Shown: positions 6,609 through 49,725 of the stretch, one piece after another
Position numbering within the stretch: the first letter of the stretch is position 1
Layout of the letters: every line of letters starts with the position of its first letter
Position numbers and translations under genes: made by a program
NCBI GenBank assembly: GCA_025093985.1
Contig: JACAAK010000002.1
Span: 124,001 to 188,000, forward strand
Direction: 5' to 3'
From: Calvatia gigantea
Taxonomy: Eukaryota > Basidiomycota > Agaricomycetes > Agaricales > Lycoperdaceae
Length of the DNA: 64,000 nt
The notes under the pieces: model-generated
Told to the model about the DNA's origin: nothing
The model's input: the letters and a program-made list of their open reading frames with translations, nothing else
Databases searched by the model: none

Positions 6609-9600
6609 CTATTCCCACATCAGAGGAATATGGTCCTCATCCATGCTCTTGCTCGCTTCTCCTGCGACCATTTCTGAGTCCCCCCACTCCCCGGAAAACG
6701 TTACGGACTTGCCCTCGTTTTCAACTTGGAAAGTGACGAGGCAGGTATTCCTGCCATGACCCAACCAGAAATAATACCACGTCCCCTCCGGCAACATTTC
6801 CTGTGACCAATTTTTCGCAAGGGTGGTGAAATAGCATGTTGTCTGAGTGAAATCCTAACGAGCCTGTTAGCCGTAAAAATACAAAGTGCAAATATGCTTC
6901 ACTGACAATGGGAAGAGTCGCTTTATGACATGAATTCCTGAGTCGTTTCCATTTTGCAAGCAACTCGTCGTCAACGTTGCAATTTCTATCCAATCGAACA
7001 ACGGGTTCGAGACTAAGCTCCACTTGAAACTGTAAGACACGTATGAGAGATCTTTAAAAGTCAACAAGTTGGCCGTAACATACTGAGTAGAGCTTGTTGA
7101 TAAATGAACTGAAATGTGTGGTCATCTCGTCATAGTGCGTAATGCTGAAATTGTAGGCCGACGCTATCGTAAGGAAGAAGTTCTGCGATTCCTGGAGCTC
7201 AGCAACAATGTCAGCCGCCCTCTCTTTAACTATCTGACTGAAAGCTATCCAATGTCCACCGGCCATTAGGTTTCGCTGGAACAACATATCAGCCTCCTCT
7301 CCGGGATGGTCATCTTGGGGGTCATAATCTGAGGGTAAGTCCTCCAGGGCGCGACTCGGGGCTTCACCTATCAAGATGTTGGCCCCCTGATATTGAGATT
7401 CGGGAGGATCACTTCTCGCCCAAGTGTTAAGTCCTGTTGCGAAGAGGCGATCCCACCAACGGATGTAGCGTAAAGAAATTTCCGACCACGTTTGTGGTGA
7501 TATTGTCGGGCCATAATAAAGCGAGGGATGTGCACTACGACTGCCTTTGGGTACGTACGTATCTCCCCCGGTGCAATAATCCAGTAAATCGGAAAGATCA
7601 AAATCCGACACTGCGCTCATTGGGAATGGCAAAGGGCGACTAGATAAGACGAGATTGGTCATCCGAAGTATCTTCTTGACGATTTCTTCAGTCACATTGA
7701 GAAAGAGGGATATTTGCGTTGCAAGAGGGTTATGATGGTGGGGCCGTGCTCCATAGCATATAAGGAATGCGAAAACCTGATCCGCTATCGGTCGTAAATG
7801 CGGAGGAATATCGTTAAGGCTTTGTGAACGGAGAAGGTCCAAGATTGTCGTCTGGTCGGAATGGTGGACAAGAATGTCAAGGACTTGCCTCAATCGACCG
7901 ACTGGGTCAGCATATTCCGGATTGCCCACGAAAGCTACAATCGAGCGGGCTAGGGAAGGTAATTGCGCCTGGATGAAGAGCTCCTGAGATGTCGTAGAGG
8001 TTGAAAGAATCACCTCCAGATCATCTGGCGTCGGCCATACGTCGGCTTTGTTCGTAGCTTCGGGAAACACGCTGCGCATTTGTTCAAAGGCTTCGCAGAG
8101 GAACTGTCGTACCCCTAGGGTTGGTCTGTGTGCGATTACAAGGCAGGTATACGGATCATGACCCAACAAGAAGTACATTGGGAGTGGGTTTAAGAGCGTC
8201 TCCCGGATCTTCCCAAATTGAAGATCCGTCGATTGAGCCTCCAGCGAGAGGCATGTGTAGCTCCATTCAGGTTCGGCTTCGAGCTGTTCAAATTAAAATA
8301 TAACCAAACCTTAATTAAAGGGATACATACACAGCGGAAATCTAGTTCTTTCATTCCACTGTAGTGGATAAGGTAACCGTATTCCTTGAATAAGCGTTGA
8401 TCCGTTAAGAATTGCGGCTGCAAGCGCAAAATGTTGAATTCTCGTCGTCCAGATTGCTATGCTGCATTAGACTCCGATTGCCTTTAACATGAGAAGCCAT
8501 ACCCAAATGTTCAATTGACGAAGCCAAGCGGTGACCTCTGTTGCTGGTTGGTGCGGATCGGGCCAGATTCGTCCTGACAACAGTCCGGTTCTATGGTGTG
8601 CAGCAAAATCAAAACGGTGGAATTCCTTGTAGAAGCGTGGTGTATTTTCATGAATTTCACTACACCATATCTTCCACAATTCTTTTGATACAAATTCAAG
8701 GACGTCTCCATAGCATGACTCCGCGGGCCAAAGCATGTGTTCTTGATGGGGAGCATCAGTCTGTGCATGGCTTTAGATGAGGATAACTCACGCCTCAATT
8801 TGTCCACAGGGGGGTTACTACCAAGCTCTCCCCATATACTACACCACTTGTTGTAACATCCTTCTATGTATGCAAGCACGTCATCTTCGCTGACGCCAAG
8901 ATCACCAGCCCTAATAACGCGATCCAGATACGACTCAAAAGTCACATGGCTCGAACGCAATCTGATAGGCAGCCTCTCGGCATCCTCAGGGTCCGGAACG
9001 TCCAACACCAGATGTAATTTCCAGATATTTTCGTAGAAAGCAGTTTGATCAAGAAACAGGAGGTTTGCAGATGATTGAGCGGGAAGAGGTCTTGATAAAA
9101 AAAGAACCCGGACTATCGGTAGGGATGCCTGTGAGATGGTCCGGAGGATCCCTGAGTAAAGAAGATGAAGGGAGTCGAATCTGCTGTCATTTTCCGACCA
9201 ATCTTCACCCGATGAAACAAAACTACGGTGCGCAACAAGCCGACGAAGACCTTCATACATCTTGGGCACAGTTTCACCAATCTTATTGGACCGTATCCAC
9301 CCTATTTGTTCTGATACAAGTCCAAGGACATCACTGAACTGGACTGGATCTGCAGGCCAACGCAGGTGTGCTAAAGAGAGTTAATTTGAGAGTGAATCAT
9401 GAAGGAATCAACTCACATAACAACGTGTCTTGCGAGGGTTTCTCGTTCAGCCCCCTCCATATCTCGCACCACCGGATACAAAAAGTCTCAACATCTGTGA
9501 TAACTTCTCCCATCCCAATCCCAAGGTATCCATGCCCAACCATATACCGGAGGTAGTGATAAAAGGAATAATGAAATACTTTGATGGGAAACCGCGCCGC

Positions 9601-11154
9601 AAATCCAGGCTTGGGGATATCCAGGACAGAATGCCAGGTCATGGAAAACCCCATAAAACTCGGCTTGGTCAAAGAAAAAGAAGTTTGCAACAGTCTGGGC
9701 TGGGATATCGGGTCGCATATAGAGGATTTGCAATACCCGTCGTAGAACTTGGGGATGGAGATTGCTCAAGATATCCCCAGTAGAGGTCATAGAGGGGTTG
9801 CAACGGATTTTCTTGTTGAGGGAAGCCTTTCAAATTTGCCAAGCAAACGTCCAAGCGAGTTTTCGGGTTGTGATATTGGTCATTTTCAACAAATAGGACG
9901 ATGGCCGAAGCAAATGAGAAGAATCCAGATGCAGCTCTTATAATAGCCGCTAGCTGGGCGGTCGTCGGCCATATTTCATCCTCCGAAAATGCATCGCTAT
10001 ATCTCTCCCGTATGCGCGCAAAGCGGTCGCGAAGATACTTGTGGATATCAGCGTCGGAGGCATCAAGTGTGATACTGATCGAGCGGCAATTGATCAAAAT
10101 ATTCGGATGGGAAAATGTTGAAACAAGGAGCCTGTCGGGACGACTTGTGATGACCCATATACAGGGAAGCCTGTGTTGAACTGCGCTTGTAATCAAGGTA
10201 ACGAACATTTGCTGAAAAGCATGTCCACGGCATTCGTCCAATCCATCCAGGAGGAACAATATTGGTCGGATCCCCACGTCCCTAAGGTGGGAAAGAGGTT
10301 CGAGTATTAACTTTTGGAACTGAACGGACAGCGTCTGCTCAAGCACGGTGGGATCTTCAATGAGCAAGCGGGAGATACGTTGCCTATATATTGGCTGTAG
10401 GACTGCAAGCTGGTGGGCAAAAGTGGGAAGGACACGGGTGGGGTCGTTGCGTTCATCCGTTCGAGAGAAGAAAAAAGCAGCACAGAGGCCACTTTGGCTC
10501 TCCCAGAGCTCTGCGACGGACTGGGCGACTGCTGACTTGCCAGCGCCCGCAGGGCCATGGAGCCAGAGTAAATTGCGATCAGCATGCTCAAGCCCTGAGG
10601 ATATTTCGTGCAGAAGTTCGTGTCGCGTTCCCTGATGGCAGCGGGGTGGAGGTTCTCGGGCGGCAGAGTGTAAACCAGCCTTCATGTTCGACTTCTGGGA
10701 CAAAAGGGATAGCGCATCACGAAGTGGAGTGTTTAGGGAGAAGGTACCGTCAGCCACAATTGTTGATGTAGTAGCGCGAGATAGTCCGGCGTAGGGATCA
10801 TTATACACCAAAATTTCGTCGTGATCTCCCACCTTGGGCATTGCTACATTGATAAATGAGGGTGGGTAAACCTGGCTGAATGAGAGGTGATGGCTCTTAC
10901 CGGCGTCGGTCGTTCCTATCTTTTTTCCCGAGGAGGGATCGGAAGCTATTTGCCGTTAGATGGGGATAAGAAATTTTGAATTCACCCTCACCTTTCTCGG
11001 CTGGTCGTTCTTGGCCTGTAGCCGGGAAGGCGGTAGATCGAGGGGAGACCACCACAGATTGGGAGGTCACCTTGTCCTTATGCTTGAGCGTGGAATCGTC
11101 CCTGGAGGAGACACTGAACCGCCCCGATTTGAATCTCGGTAGGAACTTTAACAT
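6609..11154 (-). CDS. NACHT NLR, canonical P-loop ('K' type, gene K1), with internal duplication
   Basis: NLR-like receptor with a STAND-type NTPase switch, likely cytosolic. Exon 1 (10992-11154) encodes MLKFLPRFKSGRFS and a Ser-rich linker; small exon 2 is 10901-10945; exon 3 starts at 10843. NACHT motifs: PPPRCHQGTR entry motif, Walker A GPAGAGKSAVAQ, Walker B LLDGLDEC, sensor WVITSRPD. Downstream come two copies of the winged-helix-like segment (DIPAQTVANFFFFDQ near 9.7 kb and LPAQSSANLLFLDQ near 9.05 kb). A helical segment (FDFAAHHRTGLLS) follows, then the internal signature YFLLGHDPYTCLV near 8.17 kb, a roughly 350-residue tail, and the terminal signature YFWLGHGRNTCLV near 6.77 kb. Two one-base insertions break the frame, in CCCC at 9775-9778 and near 9634. 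The partner T gene lies upstream at 16258-19183, now separated by a transposon. There are no WD40 or TPR repeats. Confidence 0.82.
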
Positions 11155-11325
11155 ATGATTGAGTGGAGGGAGTAGCAATTGAAAATTTGAAACCTGACGC
11201 TGGACACAGTAGTGTTGTTGGCAGATGTCTGCCAGATTAATGGTTCAGGGTTGCTTGTGATACGATCAAAGCTTGTAGATAAGATACACAAAAAAGCGCA
11301 GTTTTACTTATTTTCTTCCTCAACA
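11155..11325. promoter_or_regulatory. short gap: K1 upstream region and hAT left flank
   Basis: The 171 bp between the divergent starts of the K1 NLR (minus) and the hAT transposase (plus) would hold the K1 promoter. If the hAT element begins here, its left end has separated K1 from its original upstream sequence. TAGTGTTGTTGGCAG near 11210 resembles an hAT terminal repeat, but I did not find a matching right end. Confidence 0.35.
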
Positions 11326-12322
11326 ATGGCGAGCATAGGAAGACAGCACCCACACATCCTTACACAGAATTTTACATGTATTGAACGTGTCAATAACAAG
11401 TCCAACCAATATTTCTGGCAATGCAATCACTGTGATGAGAATTCCACCAGTGGAATGACTATCGAGAATCGTGATAACCACCCAATCAAACATCTCACAC
11501 ATGTCAATGAATGCCCTAATGCCCCAGCTCATGTATGGAAGGAGGCTCTGGTCTTCCTTGCTGGAAAGAAGGACCCTGCTGGTAGCATTATCTTCAAACC
11601 TGAGGGGAAGCTGAGCACCCCAAATTCCGGACTGTCCACAGTGGTTACTGGGCACCAAATGAAGAAAAGAAAGTCAGAAGGGAGTTTACTAGGCTATTTA
11701 GATCTGGCAATGATGCCAGCTCAACAAGAAAGAGCTAATAAAAAACTCTTCAGGTAGGTGAAAGTCATTAGTAACTTTTGTCACTATACACATTGATGAT
11801 TAATCTACAGATTCATCATTCACACAAATATTCCATTCTCTACCTCCGAAAACCTATATTTCCTTCTTTTTACTGATGAACTTTGGCCTTCCTATTCACC
11901 AGCCTCCCATTATGTCCTTTCACATTCCATTTTGGATCAAGAAGCTGCTCAGGTTGAGCTTGAGGAGCTTGATCACCTTCAAAGCCGAGATAAGCTCACA
12001 CTTTTATTTAACGGCTGGGAGGATCACCTTCAACATAGCTTATATGGTGCTGTTGTCTCAGAAGTCAATGAATACCCAGTAGTCCTTAGCCTAGAGGACA
12101 TGACGGGACAATGGGGGACAGCAATTAATCTCTACAATACGATCCTTTGTTCCCTAACTTCAATAGGACTTGAGGATGGCTTGAAAATTATTGCCCTTGT
12201 GACTGATAACCCAAGTGTTATGCAAGCATTTTGTACCATGTTCCAAGCAAAGTATTATTGGGTTCTTGTGAGCACCTTCTTTACGCCCTTCATGTTCATG
12301 ACTTAGACTTTGTTACTATTAT

Positions 12323-12493
12323 TGTTGGAATCCGTGATGTCACATGATCAAACTCCTCCCTACTGCCTCGCCTACTACACATGCTATCACACATATATAC
12401 CCTACTCTCCCCACCTAGTTTAGCTTGCTCATTTGTACCCCTCTATAGTACTGAATACCACTTGTCCTCATAGCTCCCGCTGTTATCTCTTCA
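12323..12493 (+). repeat. 5' LTR of Copia element
   Basis: Starts TGTTGGAATCCGTGATG and ends ..TTATCTCTTCA, the usual TG..CA ends. It matches 14342-14514 along its length, including the shared stretch CACATGATCAAACTCCTCCC. Confidence 0.88.
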
Positions 12494-13095
12494 CAAATGA
12501 GCATACCTTGTCCCTCATTATGCCAACTTGAGCCACTCCTTTGATCCGTCACTGTACCCCTGTTGCCGCTGCTACCGCCATCACTACCCTATCACCTCTG
12601 ATTGCCATCACTCCTGCCACTGCCGATTATGTCATCTGAACAAATCCCGAAGCTCAATGAATCTAATTACCATGAATGGAGAATGTACATGATGGCCATC
12701 CTGACTAGAAAAGGACTTTGAAGTATTGTTAGTGGTGCTAAGATCTACCCTAGAACATCTGAAGAGTTGAAGAAAACACGTGACTACTATAGCAAGCAGC
12801 AGCTTGCTTGTGCCGAGATTATCTTGCATGTCTCCCCATCTCAATTGGCACATTGCTCCCATGACGACCCCATACTGATGTAGGACTCATTGTCTAATGT
12901 CCACACTTCCTGTGGTCAATCTACCATCACTGCCCTTCGTTGACAACTCCACAGGCTCTGCCTCGAGCATAGTGAGGCCATCTCTACCTATGTTGCATGT
13001 GCCCGGCACCTCTCCTTCCTTCTCCAACAATCTGGCATCAAAACCAGTGATGATGATCTTTCCCTTATCATCACATCTAGACTCCCACATTCATA

Positions 13096-13947
13096 CAGTA
13101 AGGGACAAAACCGTTCCAATGTTTTGAACTTTTCAGAAGATCAGCTCATAACTCAAGGACTACTGTGGCTGTGCACTTCCTAATTTAATTGTAGATAGTC
13201 CAGTATCTTATCTAATCATATGCAAAGTATGATTATGTAATCCTTTGTTTTGGGGGAGTTATTAATTAATTAATATTTTAAGTACATTGGAACAGTTTTG
13301 TCCCTCTCAAATTCTGAGCACATGACTTCGTTTATTGCAATCAAATAAATACAAATAAAATCATGTGACCATGTAGGGTGATGTATAAATGGATGTGCTT
13401 ATTCTCAGGTGCAAATTCCCCAAACACAAGAGCAAAAAGGCTACAAACTGGCTAGATGAGTCTGAATTGGAGGTTATGGTATGGCCCCCACAGTCTCCAG
13501 ACCTTAATCCCATTGAACATCTCTGGACTCACCTCAAGAATAAGCTGGGAGAGTATGATACTCCTCCTGATAGCATGAATACCCTATGGGAGAGGATACA
13601 AAAGGAGTGGGATGACATAGAACCAGAAGTGTGTCAGAATCTGATAGAGAGTATGCCTAGGAGGGTCCAGGCAGTTTTACAGGCCAAGGGAGCTTATACC
13701 AGGTACTAGAATACCCATTTTGTATATAAATTTCAAGAGGGACAAAACTGTTCCAATGCACTTAAAATATTAATTAATTAATAACTCCCCTAAAACAAAG
13801 GATTACATAATCATACTTTGCATATGATTAGATAAGATACTGGACTATCTACAATTAAATTAGGAAGTGCACAGCCACAGTAGTCCTTGAGATATGAGCT
13901 GATCTTCTGAGAAGTTCAAAACATTGGAACGGTTTTGTCCCTTACTG
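13096..13947 (+). mobile_element. Tc1/mariner-type element with about 213-bp inverted repeats, truncated transposase
   Basis: The ends are CAGTAAGGGACAAAACCG and its reverse complement, flanked on both sides by TA (13094-13095, 13948-13949), the mariner target. Long inverted repeats span about 13096-13308 and 13735-13947. Each arm is itself bounded by inverted copies of AGGGACAAAAC(C/T)GTTCCAAT, so each arm looks like a miniature element. Removing 13096-13947 and one TA rejoins the gag frame of the surrounding Copia element. Confidence 0.88.
13389..13709 (+). pseudogene. Tc1/mariner transposase C-terminal fragment
   Basis: A 106-codon frame carries VWPPQSPDLNPIEHLWTHL, the block with the third catalytic acidic residue (the Glu of PIEHLW). 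The N-terminal DNA-binding domain and the first catalytic Asp are absent, and the region of the second Asp is degraded. It cannot encode an active transposase. Confidence 0.85.
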
Positions 13948-14341
13948 TATGATGCCTTTCTTATCTCCCTCGACACCCTTACTGATTCAGAATACAACCT
14001 TGATGGCATCATTGGCTGCATCGGTAATGAGTATCAGTGCCAAGTCTCTTACCCCTCTCCAAAGCATGAGACAAACACTCCCACAACAACCCCTGATGAA
14101 ACCATGGCTGTCGCCCTAGCCTCCTCCTGTCGACGCAACATATCTCAGATCACATGTTACTACTGTGCCCAGAAGGGGCATTATCAAGCTAACTGTCCCA
14201 AGCACAAGGTCAATGATGCCCTATCCCCTGAGAAGAAATCCAACTCAATTATTGATGCAGGCTTTGTTGAAGATTGTGACTCTGATGTTGCCTTCTAATC
14301 TTATCTCATCCTTGATTGCAACAGTCCGGAGTTTGTAGGAG

Positions 14342-14514
14342 TGTATTGGAATCTATGATGTCACATGATCAAACTCCTCCCTGTTGTCTTCCCTACTACA
14401 CATGCTATCACACATATATACCCTATCCCTCCCACCTAGTTTAGCTCGCTCATTTGTACCCCTCCATAGTGCTGAATACCACTTGTCCTCGTAGCTCCCA
14501 CTGTTATCTCTTTA
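14342..14514 (+). repeat. 3' LTR of Copia element
   Basis: Starts TGTATTGGAATCTATGATG and ends ..TTATCTCTTTA. It is followed at once by the ATTAT target duplication. Scattered substitutions and a two-base indel separate it from the 5' LTR. Confidence 0.87.
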
Positions 14515-15876
14515 ATTATAGATGCTTCCCTGTCTCCTTCATGGCCTCAATAATGCCATTGGTGAGATTACCTCATTTCCTGAAATGAAGAAAGTCATAT
14601 CCAAATGCAATCATATTGTTACATTTTTCAATGGGTCACATTACTGGGGTGATCAGTTGAAGATAGAAGCAGTAAAGTCTGGAGTATCACGATCTCTCAA
14701 GAAAAACTGTGAGACTCAGTGGTATGCTCTCATTCTTCAGGCAGTAAGCCTCATGGCACACTGGTATGACTTTCCCCATATTTATTCAACTGATTTTTTG
14801 ACTAAAAATGTCCTAGTGTTCCTCTTGGCCAACTTTGTCTTCAAACTGAAGCTCAACATCAGCAGCATGGGCTCTCAGCAGTTTCTGCTGAAATAGTCAC
14901 CACTGTTCTCAATGACCCTGTGTTCTGGGCTTGGCTGAACCAACTTGTTAAGGTTGCAAAGCCTTTTGTAGACGCCATTGGGAATCTTGAATCTCACAAC
15001 ATCAATTTAGCAGATTGCATGCTCGAGATGATTAGATGTGCATATGACATGACTTGCTTGCCCTTCAATGCTGATTACAACTACCAAGGATTCTGGCTGC
15101 ATGCAAAAACAGTATTCAACCATTGCTTTCATGTGAAGAATACTCTGATTCATTCGCTGGCTCTTTTTCTTCATCCCCTTGCTTGCCAGCTTGTAGTTTC
15201 ACAAGCAGCCAGTGGTCATTCCTTATCATTTCTCATAAAGACCACTCTCAAAATTGCACAACAGTGGAGGTGGAAGAGAGAAAACACTGAAAAACTCGTC
15301 ACAGACCTCAAGATGTACAGTCACTGTGAAGGCCTATTCGCAGGTGGACAGGTTGATGGGATTGATTGGTGGAAGGGCCTGCCATTCAATGCTGGTGTTC
15401 ACCCACTCAAGGTTTTTGTAATTCAGATTCTATCCATTGTCCCTCATGCTGCCAATGTAGAACATCTATTCTCACAGCTTGGGGGTGTACAATCAGTAAA
15501 GAGGTGTAACCTCTCAGTCGAAAACTTTGAACAGATGGGGAAGCTCTGTTGTAACTACTCCTTCCACCTATTTGATCACAATCGCAAGGCTGGCAAATCA
15601 ACATGTCATCAACATGCCCACATGCATACCCAATCTACACCTGGTATCAAGGAGGAACTCATTAGTGACCTCTCTGAGAACTTCTCATGGTCTGGTCCAC
15701 TGACAGCAGATGTATCGTTGGACAACACCAATATCAAGGGTCCAGAATCAGTCTCACTCAATGAGATTGAAGAGGCATTCATGTGGACACAGACAACACA
15801 AGTACCTGACGACCACGTGACACTGGTGGTGATGAACTCTGCATTTGTATACTGCAGCAAGCAAACCTACCGCTAA

Positions 15877-16257: not shown

Positions 16258-19183
16258 TCAATGCATAAGTACGAGGCAGGTATTAGTGCCATGACCAAGG
16301 AAGAAGTACATTGATTGAGGATTCAAAATTCTCGGATAACCACCGTGGCTTTCCAGCGCTTGTTTCAATGAGAACCCTTGGTAGTGCCATTGTTTAGAAG
16401 CAGACCTCAGCTATGTTACCGGGTGGTGAGTGGGACCGTGGGCGAAAGAAAGGTGATAGTTACCCTATCGAGATCAAGTGCTTTCACTCGAGATCGCTCT
16501 ATCAGGTCGCGGTATTTTCCCAAAAGGCGTTGATCCGTCGCACACTGAGGTTCGAGGCGGAGGATAGGGTTATACCCTGCATCCTCATCTTCCTCCTGCT
16601 GCAAAACTTGTCAGTACCAGGTGAGTACACAATTGTTGGCATACCCAATCGCTCAAGATACAAACGAGAGTCGTGATATACCTTCCAACGTCTTTCAGGG
16701 GGGCCAATTTCTCGAGCTCCCCATTGTTATGATCGTATTCCGAGAAATCAAACTGTCGCAGAGTGGCGCACAGACCGGATATTTCTTCTCTCCTCTTGAA
16801 GGACCATATTGCCCACAGTTCTTGCATAACAAACTTCAGTATGTTGTGGTCGCGGCCCGTATCGTATTGGTTTAAGGGTAACAATCCTATTGACCAACGA
16901 TCAGCTTGTCGCTTAACAAGGCAAAACAGGGGGGTCAAAAAGGCAGGAAGGAAATGACAACTCACCGCCCAAACCTCTAGCTTTCCACGCCATATATAAG
17001 GTCATATAATATTCCTCAATGCCTGCCACAACGGGAGGTTGTTCTATGCGAGCATCAAAGTCAAACTGTCCGGACTCGATACCACGCTTCAAGTACTCTC
17101 CAAAAGAAGCGTGGAGAATGACAAGAGGGGACTCCATCGCATCTTTGGGCGTAGGGACCTCCATAACCGAATGTAAGCGGCGTAAGCTGCCATAGAAGGT
17201 AGACTGATCAAGTGACAAAAAGGAAGCAATATCCTGAGCGGGGATTCCTCGTGCACCCAAGGTAAGGAACGAGAGGATGCGCTTTGTCGACCGAAATACA
17301 TCCGGATGAACGGCGCCCAAAATATCATGATAAAGTGCATGAAGGGGGTGCAGCGGATTGCCGCTTTGCGGAGTGATACCACTCCTCAAATATTCCAAAC
17401 ATTCGTTTAACTTGGCCACAGGGTCGTCACTGTCTGTGTAGTTTAACACGGCTGAGGCAAAAGCAAACAATCCAGAGGCAGCCGAGTCGACTGTAGACAA
17501 CTGGTTTTCAGCAGGCCACTCGCTCCTTTCCGCGAATGCGTCCCCGTATGTCTGGCGGACTTTTTCGAAGCCATCCCGAACGAATCTCCGAACATCCTGC
17601 TTGGCATCTTCAGTATCAATGCGAAGTTCTTCCCGTCGATAACGGATGTGGGGCCCCATGGAATCGAATGACGTGGTCGTCTGCCATTCTCGCCGCGTGG
17701 CGATGATCCATACAACAGGGATTCTGGAACGCTGAGCAGCGGTGGCAAACCCTCCGACTCGCCTAATAAACTCTCTTTGGAACCTAAGGTCTTGGCAAGC
17801 ATCCAAACCATCCAGTAGGATGAGGATCGGATGTGCATTCCGGCTCCTGCGAGTCAAATTTGAAAGGGGCGCTACGATCAACTTTTCGAACTGACTGGGC
17901 ATTGCCTCCTCAAGGACCGAGTGATTATAATTCAGCAACGAGGTGATAAGGTCCTTGTACATAGGGTATGTGGTTGCGAGTTGATAAGCGAGAGAGGGAA
18001 TGATTTTGGTGGAATCTTCTTCTCCCTGGTTTATGCGAGGGAAAAAGAAAGCGGCTCCTAGCCAACCTTTGAGTTTACAGTGCTTTGCCGTTGTTTGACA
18101 GATTGCGGATATCCCAGCTCCTGCGGGGCCATAAAGCCATAACAAATTCGACTCCCGGTTCATGTCGGTAAGCCAGGTCAATATTCGATTCCTGATTTCC
18201 AGGCGCGTCCCTTTGAGACAACTCGGTGGTGGGAACCGGGTGTTAGAGTTGAGCGAGGCACCGAAGATTGCCTTCCGGGACAAAAGCTTCATTGCTTTTG
18301 TTGGAGGTACGGGAGTATCCAAAAAAATAGGGCTGTTGACAACGAAGTTGCGAGCTCCTTGAAATGCCTGGCTTGACGTCACTCGATTTCCAGAGTCGTT
18401 TGTACCAGTGACGAGCAAGGCTTCCACTAAATTGGTCAGCTTCATTGGTTTGGAAAGGGGACTAACGAACTGGGGCCACATACTAGCTCTCTCTTCGGTT
18501 GAATACGTGTACCCCCCTGGGTCACTGCTCTCTTGTTGGATAATCAATGGCGAGCCCACCATCGACAGACCGACCTGTGGTTGCCCATCTTGCCTGTTGG
18601 CCGTTATATCTTGTCCACGCATGTGTACACCAGTAGGATTTGGCGCTGTTTAGGCATAAGGCTGGGATGCGTTCAAAGCGGGGGAAGCACACACGTTGAA
18701 CGTCAACTGCCGGTCCACCATTGTTGGGTTGGCTCCTACCCCCGTCTACGACCTTGTTATCCACAGACGTTGGCGTTGAATTCGACGTCGAAAGGCGATG
18801 GGAAAACGATACCTTATCTCGTCCGGCTGGGAACTGATCACCCCGCAGATGATTTGCAGATACCGATCCTGCTTCGCGGCTTGGTGGTAAAGTGTGATGG
18901 AAGTTGAGTTCTTTGTTGTTGACGTAGTTGGGATCCGCGCCACGTTCATAAGGCTGTATTATGCTCTCCACTTGGATTGCCGTGTTAGGCGTTTTTTTTT
19001 ACAAAACTAATGACGTCCCTTACTGACGATAGTTTCTTGAGGCTGTAGAGTTGGAGTAGCTAGTCCCTCATCCTTGGTCCTAAGGCCAGCATCTCCGTAG
19101 TTAGACGACCCGACGTCATCGCGTTCAAAGACTGTCTTGTGGGGAGTCTTGCGCCGTTTCAAACTCTTGAAGAATTTGAGCAT
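16258..19183 (-). CDS. NACHT NLR, degenerate P-loop ('T' type, gene T1)
   Basis: NLR-like protein with an inactive-looking NTPase. Exon 1 (19024-19183) encodes MLKFFKSLKRRKTPHKTVF, a short basic segment, then an acidic linker. A second linker exon ends near 18693, and the main exon is unbroken from about 18645 to 16960. Motifs: NPIFLD of the pre-NACHT segment, RFPPPSCLKGTR, P-loop GPAGAGISAICQ with Ile for Lys (codon 18110-18112), Walker B LLDGLDAC with Ala for Glu, sensor WIIATRRE, and PAQDIASFLSLDQ of the winged-helix-like segment. A helical exon follows (LWAIWSFKRREEISG, APLKDVGRYIT), then QCATDQRLLGKY. The last exon ends MYFFLGHGTNTCLVLMH-stop at 16258. The large exon has no frame break. 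The next gene downstream on this strand is K1, beyond the transposon. Confidence 0.82.
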
Positions 19184-27400: not shown

Positions 27401-27847
27401 GGTGCATTGGCCCTGTGTTCTGGGCCAGGACACTATCAGGCAGGGGTGCCTCGTAAAGCTTAAGTTGGCTATCTTGCCAATGATTTACAAGGGCAGAATC
27501 CGCCCCTTCTTCGTTCCGGAGCAGCGGAATAGAGGAATTGTGCTGTTCATTCTTGTCGGTGCCACCGGGTCCCCCGTCTTGTCCGTGAGGTTGCATCACG
27601 CGTTTCTCTGCCGTCGATCCATCTTCTGCTTCAACGCTGGTGTTAGGCAACCTTGCAACGAAACCGCATAAATGTGCATCTTACCAGGAAGCGGAAATTC
27701 TTGAAGGCCTAGAGTGGGGACAGCGGGTTCCTCACCCTGTTTGATGGATCCGGCATCTTCGTGGTTGGACGATTTCGCACCTCCGCGTTTGAATAAACCC
27801 TTTGGTGAGATCTTCAGGCGCTTCATTTTCCTGGAGAACTCAAGCAT
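24411..27847 (-). CDS. NACHT NLR, degenerate P-loop ('T' type, gene T2)
   Basis: NLR-like protein with an inactive-looking NTPase. Exon 1 (27685-27847) encodes MLEFSRKMKRLKISPKGLF, a basic segment, then SSNHEDAGSIKQGEEP. Several short linker exons follow (27.65-26.66 kb), rich in Gln, Ser, Glu and Pro and probably disordered. The main exon is open from 26653 to about 25140. Motifs: AHDFIINNPIFLD, RSPPPVCLKGTR, P-loop GPAGVGTSAVAQ with Thr for Lys (codon 26276-26278), Walker B LLDGLNNFKD lacking the DE pair, sensor WIITSRRE, PAQVVADFLSLDQAAFY. Then LWTIWSNKTEDEMSK, FDFSEYNHVNGKLEKLAPM and a short linker. The protein ends VYFLLGYDTNTCLVIAYQ-stop at 24411. K2 follows downstream on the same strand. 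Confidence 0.83.
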
Positions 27848-39053: not shown

Positions 39054-40597
39054 GCAGGTTTCGGCGGTAAAGGAGGCGGAGGACCTGGGGCTTCCACCAC
39101 ATTCCCACTCCCATTCACGTATGAACCATTCTCCAAGTTCCTCTTTACCATCTTGCGACTTCACATTTCTACCACCAAGATCGAACTTGGACACTTTCGC
39201 ATCCTCCTCCTGCGTCTCCTAAATATATTCCGCCGGCAGCTGGGGGCATTAACGGCGGTGGTGTGGATAGAACAACAACACTGCCCTGCTGCTACTGCCG
39301 CTGCTGGGGCGGAAGTTGAGGAGACGGGTGCGTCGGGCGTTCGCCTGTCTCGGTTGAGTCCCCCCCATTCAACATCTTCCTCGTGTCCCTCGCATCATAT
39401 CTCGCCTGTAACAACGCTTTCTCCTCCACAGCTGTCAAAACCACCGCACTCGCATTCGCTGGAGGTACAGGCACAGGACGCGATTCAGCAGCCTCATTCC
39501 TCTGAGAAACCTGAGGCGGTTGTTGTTGTGCCAGAGCCTTCCTCTGTTTCTTTGCCGCGAGATTCTCCCTCAACGCCTCCTTCTCAGCTGCAACAGCCGC
39601 ATGCTGTTCCAGGTATTGGGTCCCATAGCTGTTGTTGCTGTTGCTGTTGCCGCATTACTGAAAGTCGGCGGAGGCAGATTCTCGTGTTGTCCCGGGGTAG
39701 TTTGGGCGTCTATCGCCTTGCATCTGTACCGCCAAAGCAACTTTTTGCGCAGTTGCAGGCAAATGTTGAGGTGCTCCAGTACCAGCGAGGGGACTCACAG
39801 ACGCCTCGAATTACGGTGGTGGTGTATCGGCAGCGGAGGATGCACCTCGATACAGCGAATCGTACGAAACCAGCACAGAACCGCCAACATCCGGACTATG
39901 CACCCCCCTCAGTGGTCATATCATACTGCGTCAACGCCTGCTTCTCCTGCTCTCCCGTCAAAAACTGCGGAAATTCAGGAGCGCAGCGAACGCGAGGGAG
40001 CGTCGAAATAGTCAATCTACCCAACAGGGACGATACATGAGACGGTGGAAAGGGCTGATTTCTGTTCTAATTTGCATTCACGTTGGCCATATCCTGCTGG
40101 GGGGAAACGGGCGTGATGGGGGCAAGCTTCGACAATCCTCTAGCATTCTGACATCCGCGAGGATAAAAAAAGTAGATTTTACTGCAGCAGCAACACCTTG
40201 CACCTTTTCCACCCTCAATGTCGTGAAAAGGTGTCCCAATATTTCGTCAAGGGGTCTACGTGCGATCAACACCCCCACCAACCTCTCCTGGTATCTCCGG
40301 TTCTGCATTCGTAGTCGTAAACCTATTAGCAGGATTGGCTCCTTCTACGGGTTAGCACAGTGGACGATGCGACAGGGCCAGCCGTAGGCGGTCAAGGTGC
40401 TATAGCTTCTTCCTTGGTTTTGATATCCGCGGTAATGGGGGGGGTGGGTGGCCACTTTCGCGTGAGTATTCAACACCATAGCCAAATTGGTCGATGAGAG
40501 AGCTGGCGGTACTGGGGCAAGCTGAGATATTTGTAGCTGAGCGGGAGTTGTGTTGGTTCGATGTTGTCGTTGTTGGGGTCATGGGCTTGAAGATAAA
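39054..40597 (-). pseudogene. truncated copy of the arrestin gene 3' part (copy 2)
   Basis: The minus strand reads EAPGPPPPLPPKPARE-stop at 39054 and, further upstream, VLTAVEEKALLQARYDARD, AESRPVPVPPANAS and QFGYGVEY. These match LTAAEEKALLQAKYDARE, DSRPVPTPPAAGS and EFGYGVGY of the intact gene (50195-52217). Frames are broken throughout and the arrestin-fold exons are missing; similarity stops near 40597. It lies just downstream of K4 (ends 40895). Confidence 0.8.
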
Positions 40598-40894
40598 AAC
40601 CCAGATCAAATACGATTACCAAAATTCGGAACTCTAAGCCTCATCCACGTCACTACAATAACCCTCCTTCTTCACTGCAACGAACAAGACCTATGTAACT
40701 ATCACAAGTCCGCCCACTGATCATTTTTGCTTGTTTGTATCATCCCTTGGAGCCTGGTATCATGCAATCATACCCTTACACGTGCTATCATACAGTCCGC
40801 GTATTTTACCTGTTCGTACTCAATAACAGTCGTACAATCGATTCTCAAGATCCTCGGTCGCGTTCACATTCCTACAACATTTCCTGCCTTTCCC

Positions 40895-43800
40895 TTACTC
40901 CAGTTGGAAGGTTACGAGACAGGTATTCTCGTCGTAACCCAACCAAAAATAGCTCCATATCCCATCTGTAAATGTTCCCGGCTGCCAACTTGACTCGGAG
41001 GTCGTGAAGTAGAAAGTTACCCGGGCTAAATTCTAGGGGGGTTCTCAACTGTGAGTCGTGAGGCCCTGAGGTGCCGAATACATCAAACTCACGATGGGAA
41101 AAACCGCCCGACTGTATGAACTCTGCTGTTTTCTCCACTTTGCGAGCAGAACGTCGTCCATATCGTACACCCCCACCACCCTGATGAGGTGTCCGAGATT
41201 GAGCTCAGTTTGGAACTACGAAATGGATAAGTTATGATGAGCACACGCGCCCAATGTGCTGGTTATGGCGTACTGAATATAACTTATTGATAAAAGAACC
41301 AAATTGCGTGGCCATTTCGTCATAATGCGGAATATGGAAATCACAATACGATGCCGCTACGCGGAAAAAATTTGATTTTTGGAGCGCGGCGACCAGGTCG
41401 GGAGCTGTTTCTCTCACAACTTGGTTGAAAGCTATCCAGCAGCCACCCGCCAGTACGTCTTGTTTGAACAGCGCTTCGTGCTCCATAGTAGAATCGTTGG
41501 CCGAAAGTGATTTCTTGGAACGGTCTGCCTGAGGTTCAGAAATCCGCCGATATATATGTTTGGAGTGTTGTGGCTTACCTTCGAGCACATCTTCTTTCAC
41601 GAGTAAGTGGTCGCACCAACGCATATACCGAACAGAAGTTTCCAGCCATGTTTGCGGTGATACTATAGGTCTATGATAGGACAGTAAGGTTTCTTCATCA
41701 TGGTCACTGTCGGGCGTATATACACCTTCGCCTTCATCAGCGCAAAATTCCAGCAGATCGGACAGGTCGAAATCCGCGACGACGCCCATCGGAAACGGGA
41801 AGGGGCGACTTGATAAGATGAGATGAGTCAGACGAAGTATTAGCTTGACAATGTCTTCGGCCAGGCCAAGAAAGCGACTGATTTGTTCCGCTGAGATAGC
41901 ATGGCCGGGAGTCCTTGTTGCGTAGCATATAAGAAATGTGAAGACACGGCCGGCAGCTGGGCGTATGTCCGGAGGGATATCGGCCAGACTTTGTTTACGC
42001 AGCAATTCGAGGATTGTTGTCTGATCACGGTGGCGGGAGAGAATATCAAGGACCAGCTTCAATCGATTGGCCGGATTCGCATGATCCGGTTGGCCTACAA
42101 AAGCTACAATCGTGCGAGCCAGAGAAGGCAAACGTGCCTGAGCAAAGATTGAATGAGGTGTCTCCGAGGCCGAGGTGATCTTTTTTAGGTCGTTTGGGGC
42201 AGGCCACATTTCCTCGCCACCTACAACTTCGGGATACATGCTCCGCACCTGTCGAAAAGCCTCGATAAAGAATCGCGGAACCCCGAGCATGGGTCTGTGC
42301 ATGATAACGAGGCAGGTATTGCTTTCATAACCAAGCAGGAAATACATGGGGTGTGGGTTCCCGAGGGCGTCTCGTATCCTTGGGAAGCAATGAAGACCTG
42401 TCGGTTGACCTTCGAGGGACATACAGATGTAACTCCACCCCGCTGGATCAGACTTGATCTATAGAGAGAATGGATTAGCATTCATTTATTGAACGAGTGA
42501 GGAAGGTACAACATAATTAAAATCTGCGCTTTTCATCCCTTCATAGTTTATCAGATAAGCGTATGTCTCGAAGAGGCGCTCGTCGGTCGGACATTTGGGC
42601 TCCAATCGCAGAATTTCGTACGGTTTGGAATCAACTCTTCCGCCGTCAGTTACCTATGCTATGGTCAGTGTCAGGACCGCACAAATGGCCGAACGGTGAC
42701 AAACCCAGGCATTGAGTTTAAGAAACAGATGTGTGATATCCGGAGTAGTGTGATGCAGATCCCGCCAGGTCTTCTGGGAAAATAAGCCTGTGTTATGGTG
42801 CAAAGCGAAATTGAAACTGTAAAGATTCTCATAGAATAGTAGCATGTTAGATTCAGCCTGACCACCCCATAACTCCCATATTCCTGTTGATACGAATTGG
42901 AGGATATCACCGAATATAAATTCCCCTGGCCAAGGCACATCCGCTAGCGGAAGATGTCAGCCCCTAAAGCCGCCTAAGGAATAGATGAATGACCCACAGT
43001 GAATCCCCTTGTCCGAAGGGTCGCCAAGGGACCGCATTCCCCATATATCGTACCACCGGTAGTAGGATAATTGGATGGCTGTGAGAAGGTCCTTGTTATC
43101 CTGGCCAGTGCGTCCCTCCGCTATATATCGGGATACAAAATCTCGAAAGCTTGGGTGGTAAAATTCAACGGGTAACTTGTCTGCGCCGTCGGGTTCGGGA
43201 ATGGTTAAAACCGAATGTAGTCTGTACAGACCCGTGTAGAAATCGGCTTGGTTAAGGAAGAGAATATTGGCAACCACTTGAGGCGGGCACGTTCTTCTCC
43301 CCTATATAGGACAGAAGCGCGAGAATCTTCCAGGTGGTAGGTAAGATGGCCGTATCAGTATTCTCAATAATACGCAAGTAAAAAGCGTCGAGGTGATCGA
43401 AAGGATTCCCAACCCTTAACAAAGGTGGCTCTTCTTGGGACACGGTAGCACCTACCCCTTGTTTCTTCTCAGCGGGATGTGAAGCATCATTGCTATGTTT
43501 CTGAGACTCCAAGCGGTCAGACTCCGGGGTATAACACCCTCGTTTCTTTGTACCCGGCTTCACGAAGGAGATCTTCGAGACGTTCGTATGTCTGTGAAGT
43601 TCCGCGTCGGTGAAGAGGGACCCTGCCGAGGTCCGGATAACGTGGTCTAGGTTGTCCGGGAGGTGTGAGAGGTTGAGGAGGCGAACTCGAACTTTCAAGG
43701 GCTTCCGAATGACGATTCAGAGCAGCGATGGGATTCCTTTGATTCTTTCCCATCTCAGAAACAGCGAGGAGAACAGATTCCAATCGCTTTATCGGATTCC

Positions 43801-45732
43801 CGAATAAATGATCATCAATGAACAACATAAGGGTTTCTGCGAACAAGAAGAGACCCAGTGCAGCATGCGCAATCCTTAAGAACTCGTTGGCAGGCCACGG
43901 TTGTCCGTAGAGAAGGTAGCGGCGCTCTACGCTGATCCTTTTGAACCCCTGACTCAGGAATTCCTCGACATCCTGACAGGCCTCGTCGGAATCAACCGGA
44001 ATCTCCACCTCCCAGAAGCTGGGAGCGACATCTGCCTCCGAAAATACAGCCTTCAAGTGGGCCTCAGGACGGCTCGCGATAATCCAAATGAGCGGTACGG
44101 TGGGGTGTCCTCGGGTAAAGTCGCTGATCAGGTACACAATTTCACGTTGGACGCGATCACTGTGATTGCCACTTGGGTCTCCACTACACTCATCCAAGCC
44201 ATCAAGGATAATGACCCAGGACTCCGACTTGCTCCGAATCTTCTCGCGAACGAATGGTTCAATAATGAGAAGCCGGAATTGATCGCCCATTGTCAGCAAC
44301 TTTGGATCTTCAAGCATGATTTGAGTCAGGTATTCTCGGTACGAGGGGTCCCGTCTCCCAAACTGATAAGCGAGGGTTGGGAAAATTTGTTGTGGATCGG
44401 AATAACCGTGTTGTCGGGATAAGAAAAGGCTCGCACCAAGACGCCCAGCCTCGGACAGAATCTCAGCAAGTGTCTGGACAATGGCGGACTTGCCGACACC
44501 TGCCCCGCCTCGGAGCCAAAGGTGTTTTTCCCCCCACTGAGCATAATCATTGACCTTTCGAATGATGGTTGTACGAGTGCCGGGGATGACAACGGGGGGC
44601 GGGGTCACGAGCGGAGGAATCATGCATAGCACCCCACATGGTGTAGTCCGCGAGCCACCGCCACACGGCTGCTGGGTCTTCAGGTGTGGGAGACAGACTG
44701 GCGACAAGGGGGACTTCACGGTCCTTGGAATGGTCATCTCTAACCACGATGGGTGATGGATTTATAAGATCCAGTGCACTTGCGAACACTACATCGTGAT
44801 CGGCCGGAAGGGCAGTAGCGGGGGTACCTGCCGTCGGCCCCAGTCTTTGAGCCCCAGCAAGAACGGGAAATGAACTTGAACTTGGTGACCCTCGAGTGCA
44901 TTTTAGTTTTATAGGTTTTTGGTCTCGGTAATAAGAACATACCTGATTGAGAGAATGATAAACGGTCAGAACCCATGTTACTATCCGTCAGAACTTTAGA
45001 GGGTGTACCAAGGTCATCGCATGGAGAGGGGGAAAGCATAAGACGAGACGCTCGCAAATGGAACAAAGGGATATACCTTTGCGCATGCCAGATTGCGTCC
45101 CAAACTCGACTTCAGGCTGACGCTTTGAAGGCTCAGGAGCCAAATCTGGCGATTGGGTTCGTTCCCTCTATTGATTTCAGGTGGGCTACGGAGCATAGCT
45201 GCCGAACTACGCACTTGAGTCCTCCATTCGCTAGGATATGGACGCTGGTTAACTTGCTGATCGGCAACAGGGATTCGCCAAGAACTGGATGAAGGAGAAC
45301 GCTCTCCTGGCGTGACAAGACGTAGAATGTTTGTCTATTAATGCAATGAGTCAATGAGATCAGAAAAGTGACTGGCGATGTACAAAGGTCCGCCCAAGGG
45401 CGGATTTTTTGCGGGACAGGGAGGGTGAATCCAGTCGTCTACTTGTAAACTGTGTTGCAAACTGTGGGCATGGACGAGCATATCGTTCATGAACGACGCA
45501 CTCATGGTGATTTGTAACTTACGCCTGGTAATTGTGATAGTTGTGGGGAGTTAGGGGTTGTTTCAGTCGTTCCGAGTAATTGCATATTAGGTTGAGAGTC
45601 CGCCTGTTGAGGATCGTTCGGAGCATTAGGAGCTTGTGTGTTGGCTCCAGAGAAGAAAGGGGGAGGAGTGACCGCCTCTGGAGTCAATTGTCGTAGGTTG
45701 GAAGATTCCTCGGCCGAGTCACTTGATGACAT
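40895..45732 (-). CDS. NACHT NLR, canonical P-loop ('K' type, gene K4), with extra insert, frame-broken
   Basis: NLR-like receptor. The likely first exon starts MSSSDSAEESSNLRQLTPEA at 45732 (an in-frame ATG at 45747 is possible) and ends at a GTAAGT donor near 45525. Linker exons follow. NACHT: DPAPRCHPGTRTTI (with an extra C near 44590), P-loop GGAGVGKSAIVQ, Walker B LDGLDECSG, sensor WIIASRPE. About 110 residues that K1-K3 lack lie between NACHT and the winged-helix-like part (SKISFVKPGTKKRGC, SHPAEKKQGVG). Then NVP-QVVANILFLNQADFY with a frame break near 43275, FNFALHHNTGLFSQKTW, internal signature YFLLGYESNTCLV near 42350, FDLSDLLEFCAD, FHIPHYDEMATQFGSFINKL, and terminal signature YFWLGYDENTCLV ending at 40895. 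Its N-terminus is unlike those of K1-K3. The T4 stop lies about 825 bp upstream on the same strand. Confidence 0.8.
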
Positions 45733-46557: not shown

Positions 46558-49500
46558 TTATTGATATGCTACGATAAGGCAGGTATTTGTGCTATGGCCA
46601 AAAAGAAAGTACATGGGCTGAGAATTCGAAGATACCTCCAACATACTTCGTTGAAAAGGGGACGCCCGGCTCGTCATGAGTGAGAATCCTTTGTAGGACC
46701 AGTCTTTGTGGTCAGCTTCCAACTATGCGGATGGTCAGCGCACACAAAACTTTACAACATGTGCCACACCTACACGATGAGAGTCAAGTTTCTTCATCTC
46801 TGGGTGGCTTATTAGGTGGTAGTATTCTTCAAAGAGCCGATGATCTACTAGGCACATGGGTCTGGAGCGGAGGATGGGGTAATCACCGCATTCGTTTTCT
46901 TCCTGCTGCTACAGGTGTCAGTGATTGAAAGCCTTCAGCCGCAACAACGTACCCATCTGCTTAAAATACGGAGCAACCTGGTGATATATCGTTCAACGTC
47001 TTTCATAGGGGCCAGGGCCTCAAATCTCCCATCGATATGATCGTATTCCGCAAATTTGAATTGTCGAAGGTTTGGATGTAGTGCAAGTATATCCCTCTCA
47101 TCCTTGTTGGACCATATTGCCCACAATTCTCGCATAAGGAACCTCGGAACGTTACAACTAGGATCTGTGTAATAGTGCCCTGAGGGCAGAATTGCTGACG
47201 GCGCAGAGTCAGTTCGTTATTTTGCGTAAAGAATACGTAAGGAAAACAAAAGAAAGAATGGAAACAAAGAGGAAACACCACTTACCACATGACCCTGAAT
47301 CCTGCCACTCAATAAACAGGTCCAAACAGCGCTGCTCGATTTTCGCTGCAACGAGACTCGGTGTGACCCGGATATCGAGGTCAAAATCTCCAGAGGCAAT
47401 CCTACCCCTCAAGAAATCCTCCAAAGAACCATGGAAAACAGAAACAGGAGACGTGCTGCCATTTTCGGGTGTGGGAACATCCAGGACCGAGTGGAGGCGG
47501 CACAAACTCCCGTAGAAATCGGGCAAGTCAAGGGATAGAAAGTCAATAACAACTTGCGCAGGGATTTCTCGCGCCCCCAAAGTAAGGAATGAGAGAATCC
47601 GTTTCGCCAATGGAAAGGTATCTGGAGGAATACCACCCAAAATATCTTGATAAAGGGTGTGAAGAGATTGCAACGGATTCCCACTTTCTGGGATAACCTT
47701 GTTTTCCAGGTATTCCACACAATCGTGCAACTTTGCTACCGGGTTATCACTCTTGACGAAGTCTAAGATAGCAGAGGCGAACGCAAATAGCCCAGAGGAA
47801 GCCGAATCGATTGTTAACAGATGATCTTCGCTCGGCCATATGCTTCCTTTTGCCTGCAACAGTAGAAAGATGTCCGACGGACTTTTTGGAAGCCGTGGCG
47901 AACGAACCTGGAAACGTCCTCTTTAGCATCGTCGGTAGTCGATACGGAGTTGCTCCTTCTGAAAAGGGATTGGGGGGTCCGCCGCTTCGAATGCTGAACT
48001 AATCTGCCACTCCCGCCGACTCGCAATGAGCCAGACAAACGGAAGTTTGAGGCGGATTAGCGCTGGCAGGCAAATCTACCGATGAGCTCGATAAGGATCT
48101 CGCTGGAAATCATCATCTCTGAAGTAATTTATGCCGTCCAGGAGGATGAGCACCGGGTCTATCACCGGGCCTTTCATGTTTGATAGAGGCCTCACAATCA
48201 GCTCTCGAAACTGACTGTGTAATGTCCCATCGAGGATCGAAGAGTCATGCTCAAGTAGGGAGGTGATGTGATTTCTGTACGCAAAGGACACGGTTGCGAG
48301 TTGGTAAGCGAGGGAAGGGATGACTCGCGTGCGATCTTCTGCTTGGTTCGTGCGGGGAAAAAAGAAGGCGGCTCCCAACCAACCCTGAGTTTTACAGTAA
48401 TTTGCGATCGTTTGAGCGACTGCGGATGTCCCAGCTCCCGCAGGACCGCAAAGCCACAGCAGATTCGATTCGCGGTTCCGGTCGGCAATCCATGTCAGAA
48501 CCCGATTCCTGATTTCCTGTCGTGTTCCTTTAAAGCAGATCGGTAGGGGAGACCGGGCGCCGGAATCAAGTGAAGCATTATGTAAGGCTTTCCGGGATAG
48601 GCGTTCCATTGCCCTTGTTGTAGACTTAGAGAAACCTCTTGCAGACCTGGAGAAATCCATAAATATGGGATTACTGACGATGAAGTCGTGGGCGCCATGA
48701 AACACATGGCCTGGAATCGGTGGTTCCCCCGGACGTTCCAGCACCCTTTGAGGATCCCTCACGCTGGAGTCAAGTGTTTGTCCTACAGTTCGGATCCCTT
48801 TGTTCATTCCGGAGTACCACATAACACATTGCGCCACGTACCAGCTAGGGTATAACGTCGAGGTGAAATCGTTTCTCTTTGTGACTCAGTGGCTTCTTGA
48901 CCCATCATCAACTTCACATCCCGTTCCCTTCGTTGGGTATCTTCATCAGCCCCCGCGTCTTGATCATGGGTCTGTTCTGCACTAAGATTTCGGCTCACTA
49001 CAAAGTCTTGCCATCCTTCACTTTGAAGATCTCAACAACGAAACGCAAATTGCTTACCAGAGACTTTCAGCTCCTCTAAGACGGCAGATAAAATGCGGTT
49101 ATTGTGGTCGGGTATGTTATTCGCGAGGCTCGTTACTGAGACAGTATTCGGAAGTAAAACTCCTCCGCTGTCAAGGCCTATACACATAGAAGACTTTAAT
49201 GACGACCGAGGATGTCCAGACTTAACAACTCACCAGCCCTCGTTGCATTGAAATTGTGAGTGGAAAATTGTTCGGTTGTCTTGAGGAAATTTTGAAGCAC
49301 CTCCCCGACTTGATTCATCCCCGTGCCCGATCCAAGTTTTGGGGTTTGCATTATGCTCTCCTCTGGGTGGCTCAAGTTATCTTGGCGCTGTGGGTTATCA
49401 ACCTGCAAATCCGGATAGAGGTCCAGGTTGTGGGTGGTGCTCCCGGTCATCGCACTTTCTTCTCTTAGATCTGGAGTATTAGCCGCCATCCAAGTTGACT

Positions 49501-49725
49501 TGAAAGGGCGGACGCATTCCTGGTACATCTTGGTAACCCAGAAATTGAAGGGCTTGATCTCCAATCGCCTGAGAAGTCTATTCTGTCCCTGCTGGGTCCG
49601 ACTGAGCTACCAGAGGCAACAGGTTGTGAGGAGCTATCGTCACGATGAGCGGGCCTCCGGATAGAATTACGGTCATAAGGATTGGGCCGTCCTATTGCGG
49701 GTTTGTTGCGCCGCTGTGCTGACAT
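46558..49725 (-). CDS. NACHT NLR, degenerate P-loop ('T' type, gene T4), most damaged member
   Basis: NLR-like protein with an inactive-looking NTPase. A possible start is MSAQRRNKPAIGRPNPYDR at 49725, followed by several linker exons; this N-terminus lacks the MLxF basic exon of T1-T3 and is uncertain. Motifs: GAHDFIVSNPIFMD, RSPLPICFKGTR, P-loop GPAGAGTSAVAQ with Thr for Lys (codon 48427-48429), Walker B LLDGINYFRD, sensor WLIASRRE, PAQVVIDFLSLDLPDFY. A helical exon follows (LWAIWSNKDERDILA, FKFAEYDHIDGRFEALAPM). It ends MYFLFGHSTNTCLIVAYQ-stop at 46558. Several frame breaks fall between 48100 and 47850, in the Walker B to sensor region, so it may be a pseudogene. K4 follows downstream on the same strand. 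Confidence 0.75.

What the first reader, a model, noticed from the sequence alone, without database searches (positions are those of the whole stretch)
6609..49725. Four tandem pairs of NLR-like genes, always a degenerate 'T' gene followed by a canonical 'K' gene
The eight NACHT genes form four same-strand pairs: T1 (16258-19183) -> K1 (6609-11154); T2 (24411-27847) -> K2 (19779-23988); T3 (30459-32995) -> K3 (33181-37323); T4 (46558-49725) -> K4 (40895-45732). The order within the pair is the same in all four, whatever the strand. Spacers are 186-825 bp except in pair 1, which holds a transposon. Keeping a fixed two-gene unit through duplication suggests that the two proteins work together, as paired NLRs do in plants. 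I know of no described fungal paired-NLR system of this kind; novelty is inference.
Basis: partly seen in the sequence, partly recalled or inferred. Interest (0 to 1): 0.9.

Follow-up and report, generated by a model that had tools for sequence, protein, structure and literature searches.

The report
Ancient two-gene fungal NLR cassettes
A mushroom genome carries four side-by-side pairs of immune-receptor-like genes in which one partner has lost its ATP-binding lysine while the other keeps it; the pair looks old and is probably shared with another mushroom genus, but most copies here look broken and nobody has shown that the two proteins work together.

Summary
T genes form one strong clade; none of 169 other aligned NACHT domains lacks the lysine. 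Macrolepiota fuliginosa has a T-type (GAAGAGTT) and a K-type (GPAGVGKS) protein, each on a contig of exactly 7,706 bases, so the pair probably exists in another genus. T pairs, though ATPase-dead by motif, show dN/dS 0.14-0.19.

Corrections: (1) only T1, T2 and K2 look intact; T3, T4, K1, K3, K4 show frameshifts (consensus errors not excluded). (2) K4's NACHT is outside the K clade (AU p 0.0009). (3) Order is constant because cassettes were multiplied as blocks; truncated copies of a neighbouring gene lie between them and unit 3 looks inverted in place. Fixed order alone does not show co-function. (4) Single-gene relatives combine T's N-terminal motif with K's ATPase and C-terminal half-NOD, suggesting one ancestral receptor was split between two genes. 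A heteromeric receptor is the best inference; untested.

The parts
16258..19183 (-). T1: NACHT gene with Walker A GPAGAGIS (Lys lost); open over its whole length in my alignment
6609..11154 (-).
24411..27847 (-). T2: Walker A GPAGVGTS, Walker B DGLNNF; open in my model
19816..23988 (-). K2: canonical GPVMVGKS and DGLDEC, Pro/Ser/Tyr/Ala/Gly-rich N-terminal tail, C-terminal half-NOD; open in my model (1,287 aa)
30459..32995 (+). T3: Walker A GPAGAGTS; 3 frameshifts, each one extra base as aligned
33181..37323 (+).
46558..49725 (-). T4: Walker A GPAGAGTS; 4 frameshifts; 5' end not settled
40895..45732 (-).
20510..21388 (-). K2 C-terminal half-NOD exon (counterparts in 7057-8292 of K1, 35829-36626 of K3, 41235-42458 of K4): homologous to the helical plus winged-helix half of NACHT, without Walker A/B
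50298..53002 (-). arrestin-like gene next to unit 4: Arrestin_C at 52400-53002; that the ORF at 50298-51005 is its 3' part is inferred
38771..40518 (-). truncated copy B of that gene's 3' part (72-74% identical pieces)
28171..29913 (-). truncated copy C of that gene's 3' part (three short pieces, 69-82% identical)
11191..15876 (.). mobile-element insert between T1 and K1 (approximate ends)

Best explanation
The locus is a family of two-gene NLR cassettes (T then K) that arose in mushrooms of the Agaricaceae. Shown by sequence: an ATPase-dead T clade and a sister K clade that keeps its ATPase motifs; T and K proteins also in Macrolepiota; multiplication of the cassette here; long purifying selection on both; frameshifts in most copies. 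Inferred: the ancestor was one receptor with an N-terminal motif, a full NOD and a C-terminal half-NOD, as in single-gene relatives of Leucocoprinus. After tandem duplication T kept the N-terminal motif but lost the lysine, Walker B residues and the half-NOD; K kept ATPase and half-NOD but lost the motif. The two would act as one heteromeric receptor: K senses with its C-terminal half and switches with ATP; T joins K through the shared NOD surface and offers the N-terminal motif to a downstream effector. Several cassettes would give several specificities that expand and decay.
For: T clade 100/100, K clade (K1, K2, K3, P0011) 95/94, sisters 91/90, with Walker A, Walker B and sensor columns removed (similar). 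Macrolepiota P0001 (T, lysine lost) and P0011 (K, canonical) each list one contig of 7,706 bases. Among the 62 of 144 database domains put in the tree, P0001-P0003 are the only T members and P0011 the only K member, so both clades occur in Macrolepiota and neither in the Leucocoprinus, Leucoagaricus and Agaricus rows there. dN/dS 0.14-0.19 in 6 of 6 T pairs and 0.14-0.23 in the 7 of 9 K comparisons that were not saturated; truncated arrestin-like copies as control 0.46 and 0.55. Four-fold-site divergence among units 2-4 is similar for T (0.48-0.51) and the K C-terminal part (0.51-0.56). Unit 1 is the outlier in both trees (T 100/99; K 73/84). T stops at a homologous place in T1-T4 and P0001. 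N-terminal motif found in P0001-P0003, P0007 and P0063 and not in P0011, K2, K3; K5 has AHHFVMNQP, GPAGAGKS and the half-NOD. Half-NOD homology: hhalign probability 99.5.
Against: No interaction, expression or phenotype data. Only one of four pairs has both members open by my models, and those two models are my own. One T-clade protein (P0003) keeps the lysine. K5, a K-like single gene, has no T within the 20 kb read. Branch order among K5, P0007/P0063 and T+K is weakly supported, so 'one gene was split' rests on parsimony. The two Macrolepiota genes are joined only by equal contig length; order, strand and spacing there are unknown. The N-terminal motif was found with a pattern of my own, which also hits 25 of 65 places in other NLRs. 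Synonymous sites are near saturation.
Confidence: 0.5

Rival explanations
1. Linked paralogues without functional coupling: one tandem duplication made T and K, later block duplications copied both because they are neighbours, and each protein works (or worked) alone.
For: Truncated copies of a neighbouring gene between units at about 11 kb steps show block copying; NACHT matches often lie close together in this genome (by eye); NLR clusters are ordinary in Sordariales (PMC12258605, passages).
Against: Both members of the units were kept under purifying selection for long (dS over 1); the heterotypic pair probably recurs in Macrolepiota; T lost catalytic residues yet stayed conserved, hard to explain for a stand-alone STAND switch.
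Confidence: 0.33
2. T is an ATPase-dead regulator or decoy of NLRs in general (for instance a dominant-negative partner), kept for its own role; its place beside K is incidental.
For: Six T proteins have lost the Walker A lysine and all seven T-clade members have changed Walker B, yet T1-T4 show low dN/dS.
Against: T stands beside a K here (4 of 4) and probably in Macrolepiota; no T shown to lack a K neighbour was found, but P0002 and P0003 lie on short contigs of unknown content and the searches were capped.
Confidence: 0.12
3. The locus is a graveyard: the pairs are decaying copies with no present function, a relic of birth-and-death evolution. This concerns the present state and does not exclude the other readings for the past.
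For: Five of eight genes carry frameshifts; a mobile element sits in pair 1.
Against: T1, T2 and K2 are open over their full length; the broken T copies still have low dN/dS, so they broke late. Frameshifts outnumber stops 23 to 2 counting K5, and 15 of 23 are one extra base, so consensus errors are possible.
Confidence: 0.2

Closest known systems
Plant sensor/helper NLR pairs (RGA5/RGA4, RRS1/RPS4)
   Same: Two neighbouring NLR genes; only the helper's P-loop is needed (PMC9528088, passages).
   Different: NACHT, not NB-ARC (recalled for the plant side); head-to-tail, not head-to-head; no integrated decoy domain found by Pfam; here the ATPase-dead partner carries the N-terminal motif; no functional proof.
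Fungal NLR clusters and head-to-head NLRs of Sordariales
   Same: Neighbouring fungal NLRs; 225 two-gene clusters, 13 of them head-to-head (PMC12258605, passages).
   Different: Ascomycetes; the passages seen mention no pair with one dead P-loop and no conserved heterotypic cassette.
Fungal NLR-effector gene pairs (NWD2/HET-S type, amyloid signalling)
   Same: Two-gene unit with an NLR bearing an N-terminal signalling motif (PMC9815663, passages; HET-S paper as a start of abstract in the listing).
   Different: There the partner is an effector, not a second NLR; whether the T motif belongs to the agaricomycete NLR05/08/22/29/44 motifs was not tested.
NAIP/NLRC4 hetero-complexes of animals (named in the abstract start of PMC9975940; details recalled)
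   Same: Two different NACHT proteins in one complex.
   Different: Both keep P-loops (recalled); not a tandem cassette of sister genes.
Non-canonical P-loop variants in fungal NLRs
   Same: Recurrent P-loop variants were already reported for fungal NLR candidates (PMC4986451, passage).
   Different: The passages seen do not tie them to a partner gene.

Membership tests
STAND / NACHT NLR | NACHT-type NTPase core | tested here: met
   NPHP3_N over the cut-off, E 3.5e-17 to 7e-26, in pieces of T1, T2, K1, K2, K4 and in the T2 and K2 models
STAND / NACHT NLR | Working Walker A (GxxxxGK[ST]) and Walker B (hhhhD[GAS]hDE) in K | tested here: met
   K1, K2, K4; K3 has a frameshift beside the lysine
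STAND / NACHT NLR | The same motifs in T | tested here: not met
   T1-T4, P0001, P0002 lack the lysine and have changed Walker B; P0003 keeps the lysine
STAND / NACHT NLR | C-terminal WD40, ankyrin or TPR repeats | tested here: not met
   No repeat family at E up to 0.1 in the T2 and K2 models, P0001, P0011, P0007, P0063; such repeats are usual, not universal (recalled)
Plant-type paired NLRs | Two NLR genes adjacent and conserved as a unit | tested here: met
   4 of 4 units in the window; Macrolepiota by equal contig length only
Plant-type paired NLRs | Head-to-head orientation with shared promoter (usual, one listed pair is head-to-tail) | tested here: not met
   All four are head-to-tail
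Plant-type paired NLRs | Integrated non-canonical decoy domain in one partner | tested here: inconclusive
   None over the Pfam cut-off; K's half-NOD is an extra domain but of NACHT origin
Plant-type paired NLRs | Genetic co-dependence and physical interaction | not testable with these tools
   no functional data
Agaricomycete amyloid-like motif (NLR05/08/22/29/44) | N-terminal motif matching the published profile | not tested
   profiles not held; only a pattern of my own was used

The most novel reading that the evidence does not exclude
A fungal split receptor: one ancestral NLR was divided between two adjacent genes by complementary loss, so that an ATPase-dead NLR carrying the signalling motif and an ATPase-competent NLR carrying a sensor-like half-NOD must assemble into one heteromeric complex. 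Divergent cassettes, possibly old haplotypes brought into tandem by unequal crossing-over, would give several specificities; T-K units look about twice as diverged at four-fold sites as the arrestin-like pieces lying between them.
Probability: 0.3. Interest if true: 0.85.

Novelty: new variant of a known kind. Interest (0 to 1): 0.64.

Why it matters
If T and K work together, paired NLRs with division of labour evolved in fungi independently of plants and animals, and the split can be read directly from single-gene relatives. That would make testable how a STAND switch works when one subunit lacks the ATP-binding lysine, and would give mushrooms, whose many NLRs have little known function (recalled), a concrete two-gene system. 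It also warns that most of the copies seen here may be broken.
Full report
Setting. The window is positions 124001-188000 of contig C12 in a 46 Mb genome of 77 contigs. 150 matches to the NPHP3_N model were scored, a lower bound. The best protein relatives come from Macrolepiota, Leucocoprinus, Leucoagaricus and Agaricus, so the organism is most likely an Agaricaceae mushroom (inference).

The genes. I built gene models with a small codon/intron model and a protein-to-genome aligner that allows introns, frameshifts and stops. Pfam puts NPHP3_N over the cut-off in the pieces of T1, T2, K1, K2 and K4 that were given and in the T2 and K2 models. K genes continue past this point.

Catalytic residues. 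I aligned 178 NACHT domains: T1-T4 and K1-K5, 144 from 130 database proteins (of 137 retrieved), and 25 from own-genome loci (27 found, 2 duplicates dropped). The Walker A lysine is absent in T1 (I), T2, T3, T4 (T), P0001 (T) and P0002 (V). In two rows the column is a gap. The other 170 have lysine; one of these, P0003, falls in the T clade. Walker B DE is changed in T1-T4, P0001, P0002 and P0003 and in six rows outside the T clade, so it is less diagnostic.

Trees. With Walker A, Walker B and sensor columns removed, a 34-row tree gives the T clade (T1-T4, P0001, P0002, P0003) 100/100, the K clade (K1, K2, K3, P0011) 95/94, and the two as sisters 91/90. A 96-row tree with 62 of the 144 database domains agrees. 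K4's NACHT lies in a distant clade; forcing K1-K4 together costs 93 log-likelihood units, AU p 0.0009. Its C-terminal exon is 58% identical to that of K2, so K4 is a chimera or two remnants side by side. Among the 93 matches listed for the T2 core (92 of 652 candidates scored) the best outside the window is 48% identical, in K5. The K C-terminal part has one further extended match outside the window, K5 on C34, 30% identical, with no other T or K match within the 20 kb read.

Conservation in other fungi. P0001 and P0011, both Macrolepiota fuliginosa, each list one contig of 7,706 bases. I could not read that contig; equal length is my only evidence that they are neighbours. The other Macrolepiota rows list other lengths. 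P0002 (unnamed source) groups with T1, 79% identical, with V for the lysine, so T1 split from T2-T4 before those two species split. In Leucocoprinus, P0007 and P0063 are single genes with the N-terminal motif, a canonical P-loop and the K-type half-NOD.

Partition of features. P0001-P0003 and T1, T2, T4 carry an AHDFIINNPIF-like motif before the NACHT, T3 a shortened form. K2, K3 and P0011 do not by my pattern, and a scan of the three frames upstream of K1-K4 gave only a match across a stop, at K1. The same crude pattern hits 25 of 65 anchor places in the 137 proteins, so the motif is widespread and may be ancestral. K2 instead has a tail rich in Pro, Ser, Tyr, Ala and Gly, P0011 a Ser/Thr-rich one. 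The parsimonious reading is complementary loss after duplication of a P0007/K5-like gene; the deeper branch order is weakly supported.

Selection and age. Counting by the NG86 method on the NACHT core, 6 of 6 T pairs have dS 1.17-1.99 and dN/dS 0.14-0.19. K core: 0.16 and 0.18, one saturated. K C-terminal: 0.14-0.23 in 5 of 6, one saturated. High dS makes these rough. As a control, the ORF taken as the arrestin-like gene's 3' part gives 0.55 and 0.46 against its truncated copies (217 and 127 codons; that this ORF is coding is itself inferred). So T copies without the lysine were still selected as proteins, including the two now frameshifted. Four-fold sites: T among units 2-4 0.48-0.51, K C-terminal 0.51-0.56.

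How the array arose. Truncated copies of the sequence around that 3' part lie at 38.8-40.5 and 28.2-29.9 kb; matching repeats start at 50.17, 39.02 and 28.15 kb, steps of 11.15 and 10.87 kb. All three point the same way, while T3-K3 points the other way between two of them; the simplest reading is a tandem array with an in-place inversion of unit 3. This explains constant order 'whatever the strand'. No such copy was found beside unit 1. The pieces are less diverged than T and K (four-fold 0.24 and 0.31; Fisher p 1e-5 against T of units 2-4 with related comparisons pooled), and the T2-K2 and T4-K4 spacers do not align (42%). Either T-K haplotypes were already old when joined, or the pieces were homogenised, or rates differ. 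I leave this open.

Breakage. Frameshifts as aligned to T2 or K2: T3 3, T4 4, K1 2, K3 6, K4 3, K5 5; stops: K3 1, K4 1. With T2 as the query K5 shows 3 frameshifts and 2 stops, so counts depend on the query. Fifteen of the 23 are one extra base. Elsewhere in the genome 8 of 35 aligned NACHT rows carry any disruption (two loci fetched twice; one of the eight is K5; rows chosen by strong similarity). The excess here looks real, but consensus errors of the assembly are not excluded.

Mechanism. In the plant pairs RGA4/RGA5 and RRS1/RPS4 only the helper's P-loop is needed (PMC9528088, passages), so an NLR without a working P-loop can serve in a pair. Non-canonical P-loops in fungal NLRs were already reported (PMC4986451, passage). 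P-loop dependence has been shown for the fungal NLRs PLP-1 and NWD2 (PMC12881547, passage). I therefore propose K as the ATP-driven, sensing partner and T as the motif-bearing partner. Steps shown: anatomy, clades, residue loss, selection. Steps inferred: binding, signalling, need for both.

Verdict. A real and unusual heterotypic NLR cassette, probably shared between two genera, with a testable division of labour; a new variant of the paired-NLR kind rather than a new kind.

Noticed in passing
window 11191-15876: Mobile-element insert in pair 1: an ORF with a DUF659 match below the cut-off (hAT-like by recall), 167-base direct repeats at 12325-12491 and 14346-14512 (90%), an ORF with a zinc-knuckle-like CxxC..H..C pattern at 13903-14295 (by eye) and inverted repeats at 13091-13307/13736-13952 (98%), suggesting nested elements.
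   Followed up: partly
window 28171-29913 and 38771-40518 against 49907-52486: Arrestin-like gene region with two truncated copies that look younger than the T-K units beside them.
   Followed up: partly
window 40895-45732: K4 joins a K-type C-terminal half to a NACHT from a distant NLR clade.
   Followed up: yes
G000 C34:481200-484500 (L009, L010): K5, an unpaired single-gene relative with N-terminal motif, canonical P-loop and half-NOD, apparently frameshifted; Leucocoprinus has open counterparts (P0007, P0063).
   Followed up: partly
window 31169, 31335, 31501: The three T3 frameshifts, as placed by the aligner, are each exactly 166 bases apart; probably coincidence.
   Followed up: no
window 3334-3858 and 57385-57816: Flanking genes: an HSF-type DNA-binding domain and a DUF382 protein.
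   Followed up: no
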